Below, in pieces: positions 2,611 to 8,065 of a DNA stretch of 64,000 nucleotides (positions are counted from its first letter, which is position 1; each line of letters opens with the position of its first letter). Source of the DNA: Ignavibacteria bacterium (lineage in GTDB: Bacteria > Bacteroidota > Ignavibacteria > Kapaibacteriales > UBA2268); contig JAOADV010000001.1 in NCBI GenBank assembly GCA_026417135.1, forward strand, positions 186,001 to 250,000, written 5' to 3'. A program made the translations under genes and the position numbers. The notes below the pieces were generated by a model that worked only from the letters and a program-made list of their open reading frames with translations, searched no databases and was not told where the DNA came from.

Positions 2611-4407
2611 TTATAAAGAAGAAAAGTAGTTTCTGATTTTTTTAGCGATTAGTTTTCTCCTTTTCTCAAGAAATTCAAAATAATTCTCAACATCCATCTC
2701 GAATATATCTTCGGGAATACAATTCATTTTCAAATTTTCATAAAGTTCTTCCAAAGAAGTAATACTGCCAACTTTAATTCTACCTCCATTACATTGGTCA
2801 AGAACCTTTGACATATATGTCTTCGGTGGATTACTCCCAATAGCGAGGTTAATTTCCGTTTGGGTAATAACAAAATTGGCAAGTTGATTGTATTCTTTTT
2901 TTTGATAACCGTATTTTTTCAAATAATCCTTTGGAAAAATGTGGTGCAGGTCTCCCTTCTGAGAAACCAGGTCGTAAACAAGAATATTGCCGGAAAGAAA
3001 TCCTTTATCCTTTGCTTTAACTTGTGCAGCAAGATAAACGCTAAAAACAGGTGAACCCAAGTAAGTGCTTTCCAATCGTTGTGGTAAAGCATATTCCCAA
3101 AACCCATCGGTAAGTTCAGCCTTAATAGTATCTTCTAAATAGTTCAAAGGATTTTCATAAATCTTTGATATATCATTATCCATTACAGACTCGGGAGAAC
3201 CACCAGTATACCTGGCTGTTAAAACAGACATCACAAACCACTTGGAAACTAACGACTCAATTTGCGAAATTGAAAATTTTAGATCTTTCAAGGCTAAATA
3301 CAAAATGTATGCAAAATTTAAAGAGTTTTGACTTCTTATTAAGTATTTATCGATAAAACCTGCAGAACGAATTACCATCAATAGATTTTTAAAGTTACTT
3401 TCGTTAATAAATTCCAAAACTCCTTCTTCTAAAAGTTTGAAAGCTTGCTCCGATATTTCTTCTTCGTATTTTTTCGTTTCAAAATTTCGTCCCGACAAAA
3501 GAGCAACAAGGTCCTTTAATTTCCCTCTTTTAAACTTATAAACAAAAGCAACTCGAAGAACGTCGGAATATGTTGGGTCGTAAAGGTCATCCAGTTCATT
3601 TTTTAGCCACTTAATTTTCTTAAAGTAATGAGTTTCTACGAATTCCTTGTCTTTTTCAACAACTATGTTATAAAATTCTGGATGAACAGCCATATGTGAA
3701 AAATAATCTATAGCTTTACGCAATAGCCTTCCTCCATAAGTTTCATTAACTGCAATTTTCGACATAGCGAAGTCGGCCTGGCTTAGAATTACACCAGAAG
3801 CATTGATTCGAATAAAAATTTCAGTTACAACCTCGATATCTAAATCGGAATTCAACTCTATAACCCCTATTGGATTATTTAAAATGCTTCTCAGAAGGTC
3901 AAAGCTTTGATATACAAAATTTCTGTCGCAACCCTCGTTATTTTCAAGATAGTCCTCTACTGTGTCAAATAATTGAAAATCGGGAGAAAAAACCTCGGAA
4001 ATATCTTGAAACCAACTTTTATCTTTTGCTATAGCATAATTCCAAACCTCAAAAATCCTTTTAATAGGATGGAAGGAAATTTTGATTCTTTTCAAATTGT
4101 ACTCACTATCGAGAACTTCTTTACCTCTAACCGCAGTTAAAATTGCACTAATCCTTTGCTGTCCATCAATTACAATTCTTCTGCCAAATGAGGTCGTTCC
4201 ATCCTTAAGTTTTACATCCGGATTCCTCCAAATGATTATATATCCAACGGGAAAACCATTGAACAAAGAATCTAAAAAGTTTCTTACTTTTGTTGAATCC
4301 CAAACAAAAGGTCTTTGTATTTCTGGTATTGCAATTTCACCACTATCAATCCAAGTTAAAATCGTTTGTATTGGATATTGGTTTACAGAATATCGTTGAA
4401 TTATCAT
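2611..4407 (-). CDS. DUF262/DUF1524 (GmrSD-like) protein, solitary
   Basis: The N-terminal part is a DUF262 ParB-like domain: IPEIQRPFVW about 25 residues in, then a DGQQR motif near residue 85, which in GmrS-type proteins binds or hydrolyses nucleotide. The C-terminal part holds DLHHIFPKDYL followed by an N-x(n)-N-IG-x-P stretch, the HNH-nuclease signature of DUF1524/GmrD. Both are fused here, as in single-chain GmrSD type IV restriction enzymes, which cut modified phage DNA. The frame is open to a TTG at 4467, but I chose ATG 4407 because MIIQRYSVNQYPIQ is where DUF262 homology starts; that gives 598 residues. No methylase or other defence gene is adjacent. A defence role is inference; some DUF262 proteins have other or unknown roles. 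Confidence 0.82.
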   Translation of the reverse strand: MIIQRYSVNQYPIQTILTWIDSGEIAIPEIQRPFVWDSTKVRNFLDSLFNGFPVGYIIIWRNPDVKLKDGTTSFGRRIVIDGQQRISAILTAVRGKEVLDSEYNLKRIKISFHPIKRIFEVWNYAIAKDKSWFQDISEVFSPDFQLFDTVEDYLENNEGCDRNFVYQSFDLLRSILNNPIGVIELNSDLDIEVVTEIFIRINASGVILSQADFAMSKIAVNETYGGRLLRKAIDYFSHMAVHPEFYNIVVEKDKEFVETHYFKKIKWLKNELDDLYDPTYSDVLRVAFVYKFKRGKLKDLVALLSGRNFETKKYEEEISEQAFKLLEEGVLEFINESNFKNLLMVIRSAGFIDKYLIRSQNSLNFAYILYLALKDLKFSISQIESLVSKWFVMSVLTARYTGGSPESVMDNDISKIYENPLNYLEDTIKAELTDGFWEYALPQRLESTYLGSPVFSVYLAAQVKAKDKGFLSGNILVYDLVSQKGDLHHIFPKDYLKKYGYQKKEYNQLANFVITQTEINLAIGSNPPKTYMSKVLDQCNGGRIKVGSITSLEELYENLKMNCIPEDIFEMDVENYFEFLEKRRKLIAKKIRNYFSSL

Positions 4408-4701
4408 AAACAACCTAATTTTTTTGCAACTTTTTACAAAACTATAAAAAAATAAAAAAAGGTGCAATTTTTCATAATTTTGAATTTATTAGAAGTTAAC
4501 CAACAGTGTTTAATCTATTTTTTCTAACATCAGATAATCCTAAATCCTTGATTATTGGTATACAATATTATCTTGATGTTATACTTCAACTTTATGATTT
4601 TGTTATTTATTTAGAACAAAAGCTGATGTGTGAAATAAAAAAATTTTTATCTAATTAGGATTCTCGCTCAACCCAAGATTTAAGTTAAAAGGGAGATTTG
4701 T

Positions 4702-6210
4702 ATGAAATACATATTAACACCAGAAGAGATGAAATTGGCTGACCAAAATGCAATAGTAGATTATGGGATACCTTCAGCAATTCTGATGGAAAATGCTGCT
4801 CGTTCTTCTGCAATGATTATTGAAAAAATTTTGAAAGAAAATAATTTGAAAAACCCCAAAATAACGTTTTTCTGTGGCTCTGGTAATAATGGTGGCGATG
4901 GTTTTGCTTTAGCTCGCCATCTGTTCGAAAATTATGCACTCGAAATCTTTTGGGTTGGGGACGAAAAGAAAATGAGCGAAGAAACTCGAACAAATTTCCA
5001 AATAGCCCAAAAAATTGGGATTCCAATCGTTAAATTGGAAACGACGAACGACTTAAACTCTCTCGAGCTTAAAACCGATTGCATAATAGATGCTCTTATT
5101 GGAATAGGTGGAAGCGAAAATATTCACGGTATCGCATACGAAATCCTTAAAAAAATTAGTCAAGTAAATGTTCTGAAAATTGCATTAGATTGCCCTACTG
5201 GTTTAAATTCCTCTTCTGGTTTTGCAAACGAATTTTGCTTTAAAGCAAATGCAACAATTACAATGTTTGCAATTAAAACCGGTTTAGTTCTAAACGATGG
5301 CTTAAACTATTGTGGTAAAATTTATCTTGCTAATTTAGGTGCCCCCGAATTTATTGTGAAAAATTTAGCTCAAATTTTTTCACTCGAAGAAGAAGACATC
5401 AAGAACTTAATTCCCCGAAGAGAAAGAATCAGTTCCAAATTTGACTATGGTCGCGTTCTTGTCATAGCTGGCTCCGAAAGATATCCCGGGGCAGCTGCCC
5501 TTGTTGCTAATGCAACTGTTAAATCTGGTGCTGGTTTGACAATACTTGCAACTACGACATTTCATCCATCAATCTTCCCAGAAGTAATTCGATTTCCTCT
5601 GCCTCGCACCGACGAAGGTTCGATTGCCTTTTCCGCCTTGGACATTTTAAGAGTAGAATTGGAAAAAGCAGATTCCATTGCTATTGGTCCGGGCTTAACA
5701 GACAATCCAGAAACTTTAAATTTGGTGCGGAACATAATTCTCGAGTACAAAGACAAAAAGAAAATAATTGTCGATGCCGACGGGTTGAAATCTTTAGACA
5801 AAGATACAAAACTTTCGAAAAATATAGTTATTACTCCACATACTGGTGAATTTTCCATTTTAACTGGTATTGAAAGACAAGTTATAGAAAAAAATCATTT
5901 ATACTACGCAAAAGAATGGGCAAACAAATCAAATTGCATAGTCCATCTTAAATTTGTCCCCCCTATTACAACCAATGGAACTCAAACATATATCGACCTT
6001 GCGGGCAATCCGGGTTTAGCTACTGGAGGTAGCGGTGATGTTTTGACTGGAATTATAGCAAGCTTTTTGGCTCGAGGACTTGAACCACTTTCCGCATCTT
6101 CATTATCTGCCTTTGTTCATTCACTTGCAGGCGACAAATATGCTGAAAAATATGGAATGGAAACCTTATCGGCTTCCTCTATCATTGATTGCCTTAAAGA
6201 GGTTCTTTGA
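4702..6210 (+). CDS. nnr: Bifunctional NAD(P)HX epimerase/dehydratase
   Basis: This 502-residue protein has the two-domain architecture of bacterial Nnr (YjeF). The N-terminal epimerase domain (about 1-215) has the Rossmann motif CGSGNNGGDGFALARHL and DALIGIG. The C-terminal ADP-dependent dehydratase domain (about 235-500) has VIAGSERYPGAA and the ribokinase-like active-site loop TGGSGDVLTG, where the Asp is catalytic. It repairs hydrated NADH/NADPH. A GGGAG motif precedes the ATG. It begins a co-directional series with a vanZ-like gene, tgt, yajC, ribBA and an FKBP gene; its stop is two bases before the vanZ-like ATG, suggesting translational coupling. Confidence 0.95.
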   Translation: MKYILTPEEMKLADQNAIVDYGIPSAILMENAARSSAMIIEKILKENNLKNPKITFFCGSGNNGGDGFALARHLFENYALEIFWVGDEKKMSEETRTNFQIAQKIGIPIVKLETTNDLNSLELKTDCIIDALIGIGGSENIHGIAYEILKKISQVNVLKIALDCPTGLNSSSGFANEFCFKANATITMFAIKTGLVLNDGLNYCGKIYLANLGAPEFIVKNLAQIFSLEEEDIKNLIPRRERISSKFDYGRVLVIAGSERYPGAAALVANATVKSGAGLTILATTTFHPSIFPEVIRFPLPRTDEGSIAFSALDILRVELEKADSIAIGPGLTDNPETLNLVRNIILEYKDKKKIIVDADGLKSLDKDTKLSKNIVITPHTGEFSILTGIERQVIEKNHLYYAKEWANKSNCIVHLKFVPPITTNGTQTYIDLAGNPGLATGGSGDVLTGIIASFLARGLEPLSASSLSAFVHSLAGDKYAEKYGMETLSASSIIDCLKEVL

Positions 6211-6212
6211 TT

Positions 6213-6599
6213 ATGTCTTCGACAAAGTTCCTCTTAATTTTTCCTTCTGTATTTGTTGCCATCGTAATTTTTATAATCTCGCATATTCCTTCTGGTTTAA
6301 TCATTCCAAAAGCATTTGAGTTGCAAGATAAAATTTTTCATTTCATCATCTATTTCATCTTTGGGACTACTCTGATTGTGGCTTTTACAAGATACGAGAA
6401 AAAAAGTAAGGCAATCTTTTGGATAATTCTAATCGGCTTCCTTTATGCATTATCCGATGAAATCCATCAAAAGTTTGTCCCAGGCCGTTCTTTTGAATTT
6501 TTGGATTTAATCGCAGACTATATCGGAATTGCTACATCATTATTATTCCGCGAAAAAATCTGGAAGTACTTGCAGATAAAATACATTATAAATGAATGA
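6213..6599 (+). CDS. VanZ-like family membrane protein
   Basis: About 128 residues, with hydrophobic segments near residues 5-25, 40-58, 66-85 and 98-112. The VanZ signature is clear: KIFHFIIYFIFG, then SDEIHQKFVPGRSFEFLDLIAD. VanZ-like proteins are small inner-membrane proteins of mostly unknown function; VanZ itself gives low-level teicoplanin resistance, but housekeeping homologues are widespread and resistance should not be assumed. I start at ATG 6213 rather than TTG 6207, which overlaps the nnr stop. The 3' end overlaps tgt by 8 bp, so translation of the two is probably coupled. Confidence 0.85.
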   Translation: MSSTKFLLIFPSVFVAIVIFIISHIPSGLIIPKAFELQDKIFHFIIYFIFGTTLIVAFTRYEKKSKAIFWIILIGFLYALSDEIHQKFVPGRSFEFLDLIADYIGIATSLLFREKIWKYLQIKYIINE

Positions 6600-7728
6600 C
6601 TTTTATATTTTAGAAAAAGAAGATAGCGAAAGCAAAGCTCGAGCTGGAAGATTGTTTTTGAATGGAACCGAGGTCTTAACCCCAGTTTTTATGCCAGTCG
6701 GTACACAAGGAACGGTAAAAGCAATGCTCCATCGCTCGTTAACCGAGCTGGGGTATAAATTAATTCTATGTAATACCTACCATCTTTATTTGCGACCGGG
6801 CCTCGAAGTAATCAAGCATTTCGATGGTTTGCACAATTTTATTTCATGGAGAAATGGCATTTTAACAGATAGTGGTGGTTATCAAGTGTTTTCACTTCAA
6901 GAAATGAGAAAATTGACAGAAGAAGGAGTGGAATTCCGCTCCCATATAGATGGTTCATCTCATTTCTTTACCCCAGAGTTTGTAATAGAAATCCAAAAAG
7001 TATTAGGTTCAGACATTCTTATGTTACTCGATGAATGCACTTCATTTCCAGTTGACTTCCCCACAGCAAAAAAGTCTATGGAATTAACATTAAGATGGGC
7101 AGGCCGAGGTAAAAAGCATTTCGAAGAGTTTAAATCAACTATTGGTAAAACCCAATATCTTTTTGGCATTGTGCAAGGAAGTATTTACAAAGAACTAAGG
7201 AAAATATGCTTGTCGGAGCTATTAAACATTGGTTTCGACGGTTATGCCATTGGTGGACTTGCTGTTGGTGAACCAGAAGAACTTATGTACCAAACAACCG
7301 ACTTTTGTACAGACCACTTACCAAAGGACAGACCAAGATATTTGATGGGAGTTGGAACCCCAGAAAACATATTGAATTGTATCGAATTGGGAATAGATAT
7401 GTTCGATTGCGTTTTGCCTACAAGGAATGCAAGAAACGGACAACTATTTACTACAAGAGGTAAAATAAACATCAGAAATGCAAAATACAAATTTTCGAAA
7501 GAACTAATCGACGAAGGGCTAAGGAACTATGTAAGTCAAAACTTTACCTTAGGTTACTTACGACATCTGTTCCTTTCCCAAGAAATACTTGCAATTGAAC
7601 TCGCCACATTTCAAAACTTAGCATTTTACAATTGGCTCGTTACAACGGCGAGAGAAAAAATACTTGAAGGCAAATTCCGTCAATGGAAAAATTGCGTAAT
7701 TTTGAATTTTAAAAATAACAACAATTGA
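6592..7728 (+). CDS. tgt: tRNA-guanine transglycosylase (Tgt) lacking zinc ligands
   Basis: Tgt swaps guanine-34 of GUN-anticodon tRNAs for the queuosine precursor preQ1. The 378-residue protein has the whole catalytic barrel: LTDSGGYQVFSL (D93, general acid/base), LLDECTSFP, GIVQGS, YAIGGLAVGE, and FDCVLPTRNARNG (D272, nucleophile). The family's C-terminal zinc site, normally C-x-C-x2-C plus a later His, is absent. The equivalent stretch is DEGLRNYVSQNF, placing L310, N312 and S315 at the three Cys positions and Q341 at the His. Flanking conserved motifs stay in frame, so this is substitution, not a frameshift. The tgt-yajC order is a classic linkage. Confidence in family is high; activity is untested. 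Confidence 0.9.
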   Translation: MNDFYILEKEDSESKARAGRLFLNGTEVLTPVFMPVGTQGTVKAMLHRSLTELGYKLILCNTYHLYLRPGLEVIKHFDGLHNFISWRNGILTDSGGYQVFSLQEMRKLTEEGVEFRSHIDGSSHFFTPEFVIEIQKVLGSDILMLLDECTSFPVDFPTAKKSMELTLRWAGRGKKHFEEFKSTIGKTQYLFGIVQGSIYKELRKICLSELLNIGFDGYAIGGLAVGEPEELMYQTTDFCTDHLPKDRPRYLMGVGTPENILNCIELGIDMFDCVLPTRNARNGQLFTTRGKINIRNAKYKFSKELIDEGLRNYVSQNFTLGYLRHLFLSQEILAIELATFQNLAFYNWLVTTAREKILEGKFRQWKNCVILNFKNNNN

Positions 7729-7738
7729 AAGGTTGAAA

Positions 7739-8065
7739 ATGTTTCTTTCTTTAATGAATTTTTTCGCTTTTGTACCACCGCAAGGCAGTGGGGCTAAGGA
7801 CCCGGGAAGCGGAATGCTTTTCACTTTAATAATGATTATTTCAATATTCTTGATTATGTATTTTCTTATGATAAGACCTCAACAAAAAAGGCAACGTGAA
7901 CATCAGAAAATGCTTGAAAGCTTGAAAAAAGGAGATAAAGTAATAACTAGCGCTGGTATTCACGGCACTATAATCGATATGGATGGTCCTACGGTAACCT
8001 TGCAAGTATCTGACCATTGTAAAATACAATTCGAAAAACATGCTATAGTTGGGAAAAAACAATAA
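7739..8065 (+). CDS. yajC: Sec translocon accessory protein YajC
   Basis: About 108 residues: a short N-terminal tail, one membrane helix (around FTLIMIISIFLIMYFLMI), then the signature IRPQQKRQREHQKMLESLKK and a compact cytoplasmic domain with KGDKVITSAGIHGTI. YajC is a single-span subunit of the SecDF-YajC complex that assists protein export. The secD/secF genes are not in the window. I prefer ATG 7739, with GAAAGG about seven bases upstream, over TTG 7733. It lies 10 bp after tgt, the usual neighbour. Confidence 0.92.
   Translation: MFLSLMNFFAFVPPQGSGAKDPGSGMLFTLIMIISIFLIMYFLMIRPQQKRQREHQKMLESLKKGDKVITSAGIHGTIIDMDGPTVTLQVSDHCKIQFEKHAIVGKKQ

What the first reader, a model, noticed from the sequence alone, without database searches (positions are those of the whole stretch)
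6592..7728. Tgt with all four zinc ligands substituted
Bacterial Tgt uses three Cys and one His for structural zinc. Aligning by the flanking KIRNAKY and Y-L-x-HL blocks, this protein has L310, N312, S315 and Q341 in those places, while both catalytic aspartates (D93, D272) are kept. Zinc loss with intact catalysis would be a structural novelty, or the enzyme could have changed substrate.
Basis: partly seen in the sequence, partly recalled or inferred. Interest (0 to 1): 0.6.

Follow-up and report, generated by a model that had tools for sequence, protein, structure and literature searches.

The report
Zinc-free Tgt common in this lineage
This tRNA-modifying enzyme really has lost all four amino acids that hold its textbook zinc atom, but the same loss is found throughout its order and in most of the wider phylum examined, so it is a widespread, probably still working, zinc-free version of a known enzyme rather than an oddity of this genome.

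Summary
The ORF at 6592-7728 is a complete Tgt that aligns without gaps to zinc-bearing Tgts over the C-terminal region; L310, N312, S315 and Q341 stand where Cys, Cys, Cys and His belong, and no other Cys cluster replaces them. The loss is not peculiar to this genome: 62 of 62 genomes read in its order lack the site, as do 107 of 111 in other classes of the phylum, against 1 of 27 in sister orders of its class. Outgroups keep it (45 of 46 and 15 of 15); the one exception is an independent loss. A change of substrate is not supported: catalytic, base-recognition and dimer hot-spot residues are kept, it is the genome's only Tgt, and QueC, QueD-family, QueF, QueA and QueG genes are present. The predicted fold matches Z. 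mobilis Tgt (Z 52), with the former zinc subdomain at pLDDT 94-98. In 173 of 173 zinc-site-less genomes the former His is His or Gln (one named locus has Asn), suggesting polar packing in place of the metal. QueC and RibBA keep their Cys motifs, so general zinc avoidance is unlikely. Ten text searches found no description. New variant of a known kind; metal content and activity are untested.

The parts
6592..7728 (+). tgt, tRNA-guanine(34) transglycosylase, 378 aa, lacking the CXCXXC...H zinc site
   Evidence: fold match to solved Tgt structures
7519..7536 (+). codons 310-315, L-R-N-Y-V-S, in place of the C-X-C-X-X-C zinc motif
   Evidence: ungapped alignment to E. coli and Z. mobilis Tgt and to 93 CCCH Tgts; coordinates computed from the ORF start
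7612..7614 (+). codon 341, Gln in place of the fourth ligand His
   Evidence: the 173 distinct zinc-site-less genomes have His (89) or Gln (84) here; among 75 zinc-site-less named loci one, L038, has Asn
7543..7566 (+). codons 318-325, F-T-L-G-Y-L-R-H, holding the equivalents of the Z. mobilis dimer hot-spot residues Trp326, Tyr330 and His333
   Evidence: Y322 and H325 in 174 of 174 zinc-site-less and 93 of 93 zinc-type rows (the 174 include one duplicate genome)
6868..6870 (+). codon 93, catalytic Asp (Z. mobilis Asp102 equivalent)
7405..7407 (+). codon 272, nucleophile Asp (Z. mobilis Asp280 equivalent)
7733..8065 (+). yajC, the downstream neighbour; the listed TTG start lies 4 bases after the tgt stop, an in-frame ATG at 7739
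   Evidence: Pfam YajC 107.8 bits; sequence
6207..6599 (+). VanZ-like gene upstream whose end overlaps the tgt start by 8 bases

Best explanation
An ordinary, functional housekeeping Tgt of a Candidatus Kapabacteria-type bacterium: a homodimeric TIM-barrel enzyme that exchanges G34 of GUN-anticodon tRNAs for preQ1, with D272 as nucleophile and D93 as general acid/base. Its C-terminal subdomain, which carries part of the dimer interface, folds without the structural zinc. Shown: the ligands are gone, the loss is lineage-wide, the catalytic and interface residues and most of the pathway are kept, and the predicted fold is unchanged. Inferred: the protein binds no zinc, the gap is filled by a hydrophobic residue at 310 plus a polar pair at 315/341 (mostly Ser, Cys or Asp with Gln or His), the enzyme is a dimer and it is active.
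For: Family scores; ungapped alignment; sole Tgt in a 98.15% complete genome; 62 of 62 genomes read in the order lack the site; D272, R278, R281, Y322, H325, E331 and N342 in 174 of 174 zinc-site-less rows, and Cys149, Gln195, Gly221, Gly222, Val225 in 172 of 172 rows that cover them; position 341 His or Gln in 173 of 173 zinc-site-less genomes; AlphaFold2 pLDDT 90.2 overall, 94-98 for the ten-residue blocks from 301 to 350; Z 52.5 and rmsd 1.7 A over 374 residues to 1q2r, Z 52.0 to 1pud; QueC, QueD-family, QueF, QueA and QueG in the same genome; tight placing between a VanZ-like gene and yajC.
Against: No measurement of metal or activity. AlphaFold2 models no metal and often keeps the fold of an emptied site, so the model cannot prove stability without zinc. 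32 of 174 zinc-site-less rows keep two ligands and might bind a metal weakly; the window's protein keeps none. One named locus, L038, has Met315 and Asn341, so the polar pair is not universal. QueE and the tRNA genes were not searched in the genome. PMC9508795 (passages read) lists TGT among enzymes that require zinc for activity.
Confidence: 0.86

Rival explanations
1. The protein has changed substrate (another base, another RNA or DNA), and zinc was lost with the old function.
For: A structural element kept by most solved relatives is missing.
Against: Base-recognition residues are those of preQ1-type bacterial Tgt; the TIGR00430 equivalog score is 154 bits over its cut-off; archaeal TgtA (TIGR00432) scores 121.4 bits against a cut-off of 350; no other Tgt was found that could serve the QueC/QueF/QueA/QueG set of the genome. 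Zinc-site-less relatives lie in dozens of genera with a single Tgt each (in one search three genomes show two fragments of a split gene).
Confidence: 0.04
2. Still a metal protein: another site, or non-canonical ligands at the same place, binds zinc.
For: Some relatives keep Cys315 and His341 (for example family f29, F-S-C-H).
Against: The window's protein has no Cys between 273 and 368 and no His after 242 other than H325; in the 62 own-order rows no column of residues 285-378 holds Cys or His in 20% or more, apart from H325 and column 341.
Confidence: 0.05
3. Zinc sparing: the lineage dispenses with zinc in many proteins and Tgt is one of them.
For: Loss of a structural zinc site in a housekeeping enzyme fits such a story; a Zur-controlled QueD2 is predicted in the same pathway of some bacteria (PMC9508795 passage).
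Against: The same genome's QueC keeps C-X7-C-X2-C-X2-C, and RibBA, the second gene downstream, keeps C-X10-C-X-C in its GTP cyclohydrolase II domain (sequence, domain; that these two motifs are the zinc ligands is recalled). The loss is constitutive, with no zinc-type Tgt as partner. Only these two proteins were looked at.
Confidence: 0.08
4. Decaying gene or sequencing artefact.
For: None found.
Against: Intact frame, identical L-N-S-Q in four same-genus genomes, catalytic residues kept.
Confidence: 0.01

Closest known systems
Bacterial tRNA-guanine transglycosylase (Tgt; TIGR00430; Z. mobilis and E. coli enzymes)
   Same: Whole-length homology, 44-46% identity in the structural alignments to Z. 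mobilis entries, catalytic Asp pair, preQ1-type pocket residues, dimer hot-spot Tyr and His, fold.
   Different: All four zinc ligands replaced by L, N, S, Q.
Tgt of other Bacteroidota, Balneolota and Rhodothermota (for example Flavobacterium G-T-D-H, Sphingobacterium S-L-D-H)
   Same: Zinc site broken at the same columns with the rest of the enzyme kept.
   Different: Replacement residues differ by lineage; many keep His341 and some also Cys315.
Zinc-type Tgt of sister orders in the same class (26 genomes, for example L118, L120, L193-L199)
   Same: Same enzyme at 50-58% identity.
   Different: Intact C-X-C-X-X-C...H in 26 of 27 genomes read.
Eukaryotic QTRT1/QTRT2
   Same: Fold, and the catalytic residues of QTRT1.
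   Different: Both keep the zinc site (passages of PMC6165067, and PMC8092309) and the enzyme takes queuine; the window's protein keeps the bacterial Cys149 and Val225.

Membership tests
Bacterial Tgt (TIGR00430) | Score above the equivalog cut-off over the whole length | tested here: met
   461 against 306.75 bits, residues 12-367
Bacterial Tgt (TIGR00430) | Catalytic Asp pair (Z. mobilis Asp102, Asp280) | tested here: met
   D93 and D272
Bacterial Tgt (TIGR00430) | preQ1-type pocket (Cys158 and Val233 of Z. mobilis) | tested here: met
   C149 and V225; role of the two residues in passages of PMC3660597
Bacterial Tgt (TIGR00430) | Structural zinc site C-X-C-X-X-C...H | tested here: not met
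   L310, N312, S315, Q341. Described as a hallmark of TGTs, but missing in 173 of 266 distinct genomes read whose best match is otherwise a Tgt of this kind, so I treat it as typical and not as defining; the filing as Tgt rests on the other rows
Bacterial Tgt (TIGR00430) | TIM-barrel fold with C-terminal subdomain | tested here: met
   Z 52.5, rmsd 1.7 A, 374 residues to 1q2r; Z 52.0 to 1pud, on a predicted model
Bacterial Tgt (TIGR00430) | Homodimer hot spot (Phe92, Trp326, Tyr330, His333 of Z. mobilis) | tested here: met
   By alignment: F83, F318 (Trp to Phe), Y322, H325 (residues named in a passage of PMC5395182). Dimerisation itself not testable here
Bacterial Tgt (TIGR00430) | Exchange of G34 for preQ1 in GUN tRNAs | not testable with these tools
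   Needs the purified enzyme
Archaeal TgtA / archaeosine enzymes | Score above the TIGR00432 cut-off | tested here: not met
   121.4 against 350 bits
Eukaryotic-type queuine-inserting Tgt | Val and Gly in place of bacterial Cys158 and Val233 | tested here: not met
   C149, V225

The most novel reading that the evidence does not exclude
Tgt, held up as a zinc enzyme in all domains of life, is a metal-free enzyme across a whole order and most of the Bacteroidota-type phylum, the zinc having been lost at least twice (once more in an unrelated phylum, genome G237), with the dimer hot spot kept and the fourth ligand narrowed almost wholly to His or Gln, so that a polar side-chain contact takes over the job of the metal. 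A bolder extension, not excluded but untested, is that the metal-free subdomain alters dimer stability or the number of tRNAs bound.
Probability: 0.68. Interest if true: 0.55.

Novelty: new variant of a known kind. Interest (0 to 1): 0.45.

Why it matters
Papers on the family call the zinc domain a hallmark of TGTs or its residues highly conserved, and one lists Tgt among enzymes that need zinc (passages). A lineage-wide natural experiment in which only the metal site goes, while catalytic residues, dimer contacts and predicted fold stay, makes the question of what the zinc is for directly testable by comparing sister orders with and without it. It also warns that annotation which assigns zinc binding to every Tgt would be wrong for most of the genomes read in this phylum, and gives a contrast for inhibitor design aimed at the interface that the zinc subdomain helps to build.

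Tried and rejected
Displaced ligands: Cys and His positions were listed for the window's protein and the own-order rows; no alternative cluster. Second, normal Tgt in the genome: one match only with PF01702 and with the protein itself. Change of substrate, archaeal-type or eukaryotic-type specificity: not supported. General zinc avoidance: QueC and RibBA keep their Cys motifs; no other protein was checked.

One loss or several inside the phylum: not settled. The tree made without the zinc columns (94 rows that I picked by hand from the 263 aligned) needs at least 4 changes, but holding the 63 zinc-site-less rows (without L127) as one clade is not rejected (p-AU 0.315), nor all 64 (p-AU 0.106). 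The deep forks are open. The taxonomy codes point to separate losses, since 26 of 27 genomes in sister orders of the class keep the site, but that rests on the taxonomy and not on this gene tree. The case outside the phylum (G237, L349) is clearer: its twelve best matches are all CCCH-type Tgts of the same outside sample. In that call the labels with a space were cut by BLAST, so its second list (meant as best zinc-site-less rows) also shows a CCCH row, G180.

Against a strict rule at position 341: L038 (Chitinophagales, S-C-M-N) has Asn there and Met at 315. Covariation of 315 with 341 was tabulated but not tested against ancestry; I claim no statistics for it.

Literature: ten searches of the held open library listed no paper that by title or abstract start is about a Tgt without zinc; seven papers were opened, passages only. 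Subscription papers are not in that library, and the E. coli zinc-ligand mutagenesis paper (Chong 1995) was seen only in a reference list. No tRNA gene lies in the window; tRNAs of the rest of the genome, and QueE, were not searched. The second structure job was not used.

Rows dropped before counts: L001 (the own gene again); G216, a second copy of the genome G003 (same place and score), left out of the 266 and of the 173; L273-L275, second, distant Tgt-like proteins of three outgroup genomes (all CCCH), left out of the genome table. The 80 named loci are counted apart except for eight whose genomes got G handles; L032 is the same gene as L006. Unread: 2 of 60 genomes and 2 of 158 have no match; of the 117 matching genomes in other classes of the phylum 111 were read (six had no coordinates listed); of 59 matching genomes of G217's phylum 46 were read, those with the best scores, so that sample leans towards relatives of the query. 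Four own-order rows (G005, G054, G056, G057) are fragments that cover the ligand columns. Two named loci titled Pseudomonadota stand out: L100 (CCCH) and L082 (titled Rhizobium, G-T-D-H like Flavobacterium, perhaps a misplaced contig).

Full report
What is there. The ORF 6592-7728 on the + strand is intact, 378 residues. It matches Pfam TGT with 479.1 bits and the equivalog TIGR00430 with 461 bits against a cut-off of 306.75. It is the only Tgt found in the genome, which has 2,238,018 bases in 63 contigs and is 98.15% complete. It lies in a tight gene string: its start overlaps the end of a VanZ-like gene by 8 bases, and the listed TTG start of yajC lies 4 bases after its stop (an in-frame ATG at 7739), followed by ribBA and an FKBP gene. 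The genome G216 that holds L032, titled Candidatus Kapabacteria, has its Tgt at the same place and score as the same-genus genome G003, so the window comes from that kind of organism.

The ligands. In the phmmer alignments to E. coli and Z. mobilis Tgt there is no gap across the C-terminal region. L310, N312 and S315 stand at the three Cys and Q341 at the His. MAFFT alignments with all loci give the same columns. The protein has no Cys between 273 and 368 and no His after 242 except H325, which is an interface residue and not a ligand.

How widespread. Distinct genomes were read at the four columns. In the window's own order 62 of 62 (own, 4 same genus, 29 same family, 28 same order) lack the set. 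In other orders of the same class 26 of 27 keep it; the exception, G147 (L127, F-S-N-H), has a relative in its own family that keeps it. In other classes of the phylum 107 of 111 lack it; the four that keep it are all of family f18. Among the 80 named loci, 5 have CCCH: three 'Bacteroidetes' genomes without a class name (L033, L034, L036), one Latescibacterota and one titled Dyella; none of the loci labelled Flavobacteriia, Bacteroidia, Sphingobacteriia, Chitinophagia, Cytophagia, Saprospiria, Balneolia or Rhodothermia has it (NCBI names; the last two classes have one locus each). Outside the phylum, 15 of 15 matching genomes in the phylum of L058 (Latescibacterota) and 45 of 46 read in the phylum of L100's genome keep it. 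The single exception there, G237 (L349, L-C-S-H), is nearest in sequence to CCCH Tgts of that same sample, 63% identity to L350, so it is an independent loss.

How many losses. A tree of 94 chosen rows built without the zinc columns needs at least four changes, with the own order as a supported clade of 30 rows (100/95). The data do not reject a single clade of zinc-site-less rows (p-AU 0.315 without L127; 0.106 with it). At least two losses are supported (phylum of the window, and G237); more inside the phylum are likely from the taxonomy but not proven by this gene.

Does it still work. Among the zinc-site-less rows D272, R278, R281, Y322, H325, E331 and N342 are the same in 174 of 174, and Cys149, Gln195, Gly221, Gly222 and Val225 in 172 of 172 rows that cover them (the 174 include the duplicate G216). 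C149 and V225 are the Z. mobilis Cys158 and Val233 equivalents: exchanging Cys158 lowers preQ1 affinity, and a Gly at 233 is needed to make room for queuine in a productive pose (passages of PMC3660597, and PMC6165067). F83, Y322 and H325 correspond to the interface hot spot Phe92, Tyr330, His333, with F318 for Trp326 (residues named in a passage of PMC5395182; equivalence by my alignment). Most of the rest of the route to queuosine is present: QueC, two QueD-family genes, QueF (one over the cut-off), two QueA-family genes and QueG; QueE was not searched. This fits an enzyme that makes preQ1-tRNA for QueA.

Structure. AlphaFold2 with 48 relatives gives pLDDT 90.2 and pTM 0.91; the ten-residue blocks from 301 to 350 score 94-98. 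The model superposes on Tgt crystal structures with Z 52.5, rmsd 1.7 A over 374 residues (1q2r) and Z 52.0 for Z. mobilis 1pud (Foldseek agrees). The low-confidence stretch 96-101 lies just after the catalytic D93, not in the former zinc subdomain. AlphaFold2 builds no metals, so the model says only that the sequence is compatible with the same fold.

What replaces the zinc (inference). Position 310 is F, L, I or V in 145 of 174 zinc-site-less rows, 315 is Ser (85), Cys (54) or Asp (25), and 341 is only His (89) or Gln (85, of which 84 in distinct genomes). Of the named loci one, L038, departs with Met315 and Asn341. The narrow choice at 341 next to Asn342, the same in every row, suggests that this side chain still makes a fixed hydrogen bond, possibly to 315. 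In 58 full own-order rows the emptied loop 303-318 is less conserved (41.5% mean pairwise identity) than residues 15-302 (62.6%), more so than in the 27 rows of the sister orders, of which 26 are zinc-type (55.6 against 69.0%), as expected if the metal no longer constrains it.

Not zinc avoidance in general. QueC of the same genome keeps C-X7-C-X2-C-X2-C and RibBA keeps C-X10-C-X-C (translation). A passage of PMC9508795 lists QueC among zinc-requiring enzymes; that these particular motifs are the ligands is recalled knowledge. No wider survey was made.

Known or not. The papers whose passages I read describe the zinc domain as a hallmark of TGTs or its residues as highly conserved (PMC6165067; PMC4425180), or list TGT as needing zinc (PMC9508795); the E. 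coli cryo-EM paper PMC13416341 does not use the word zinc in its main text. Ten searches of the open library brought up no account of a Tgt without the site. This is weak evidence of novelty, since sequence curators may have noted it and subscription papers are not held.

Verdict. New variant of a known kind; moderate interest, mainly because the phylum offers natural pairs for testing what the structural zinc does.

Noticed in passing
own genome G000:C55:28698-29729 and C4:14584-15789: Two QueA-family proteins in frames of 350 and 423 residues; 20 of 20 genomes searched carry at least two matches, 19 of them exactly two. The role of the longer one was not studied.
   Followed up: no
own genome G000:C22:9707-10371 and C44:63391-64400: QueF lies next to one PTPS/QueD-family gene; the second PTPS gene lies next to a weak QueF-like match below the cut-off, possibly GTP cyclohydrolase I.
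   Followed up: no
G003:C1:57543-58457: The QueG match of this same-genus genome contains one TAG and one TAA, either decay or an assembly fault.
   Followed up: no
window 2611-4467 (-): 618-residue protein with a GmrSD N-terminal domain (101.6 bits), perhaps a type IV restriction enzyme.
   Followed up: no
L273, L274, L275: Three genomes of the Latescibacterota-type phylum hold a second, distant Tgt-like protein (34-36% identity) that keeps the zinc site.
   Followed up: no
L349 (G237): One genome outside the phylum has lost the zinc site independently (L-C-S-H).
   Followed up: partly
L082: A locus titled Rhizobium sp. MAG carries a Flavobacterium-type zinc-site-less Tgt (G-T-D-H), perhaps a misplaced contig.
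   Followed up: no
G097 and G199: Two genomes of the phylum sample, listed as 99% complete, show no Tgt match at all, so the enzyme can be lost altogether in this phylum.
   Followed up: no
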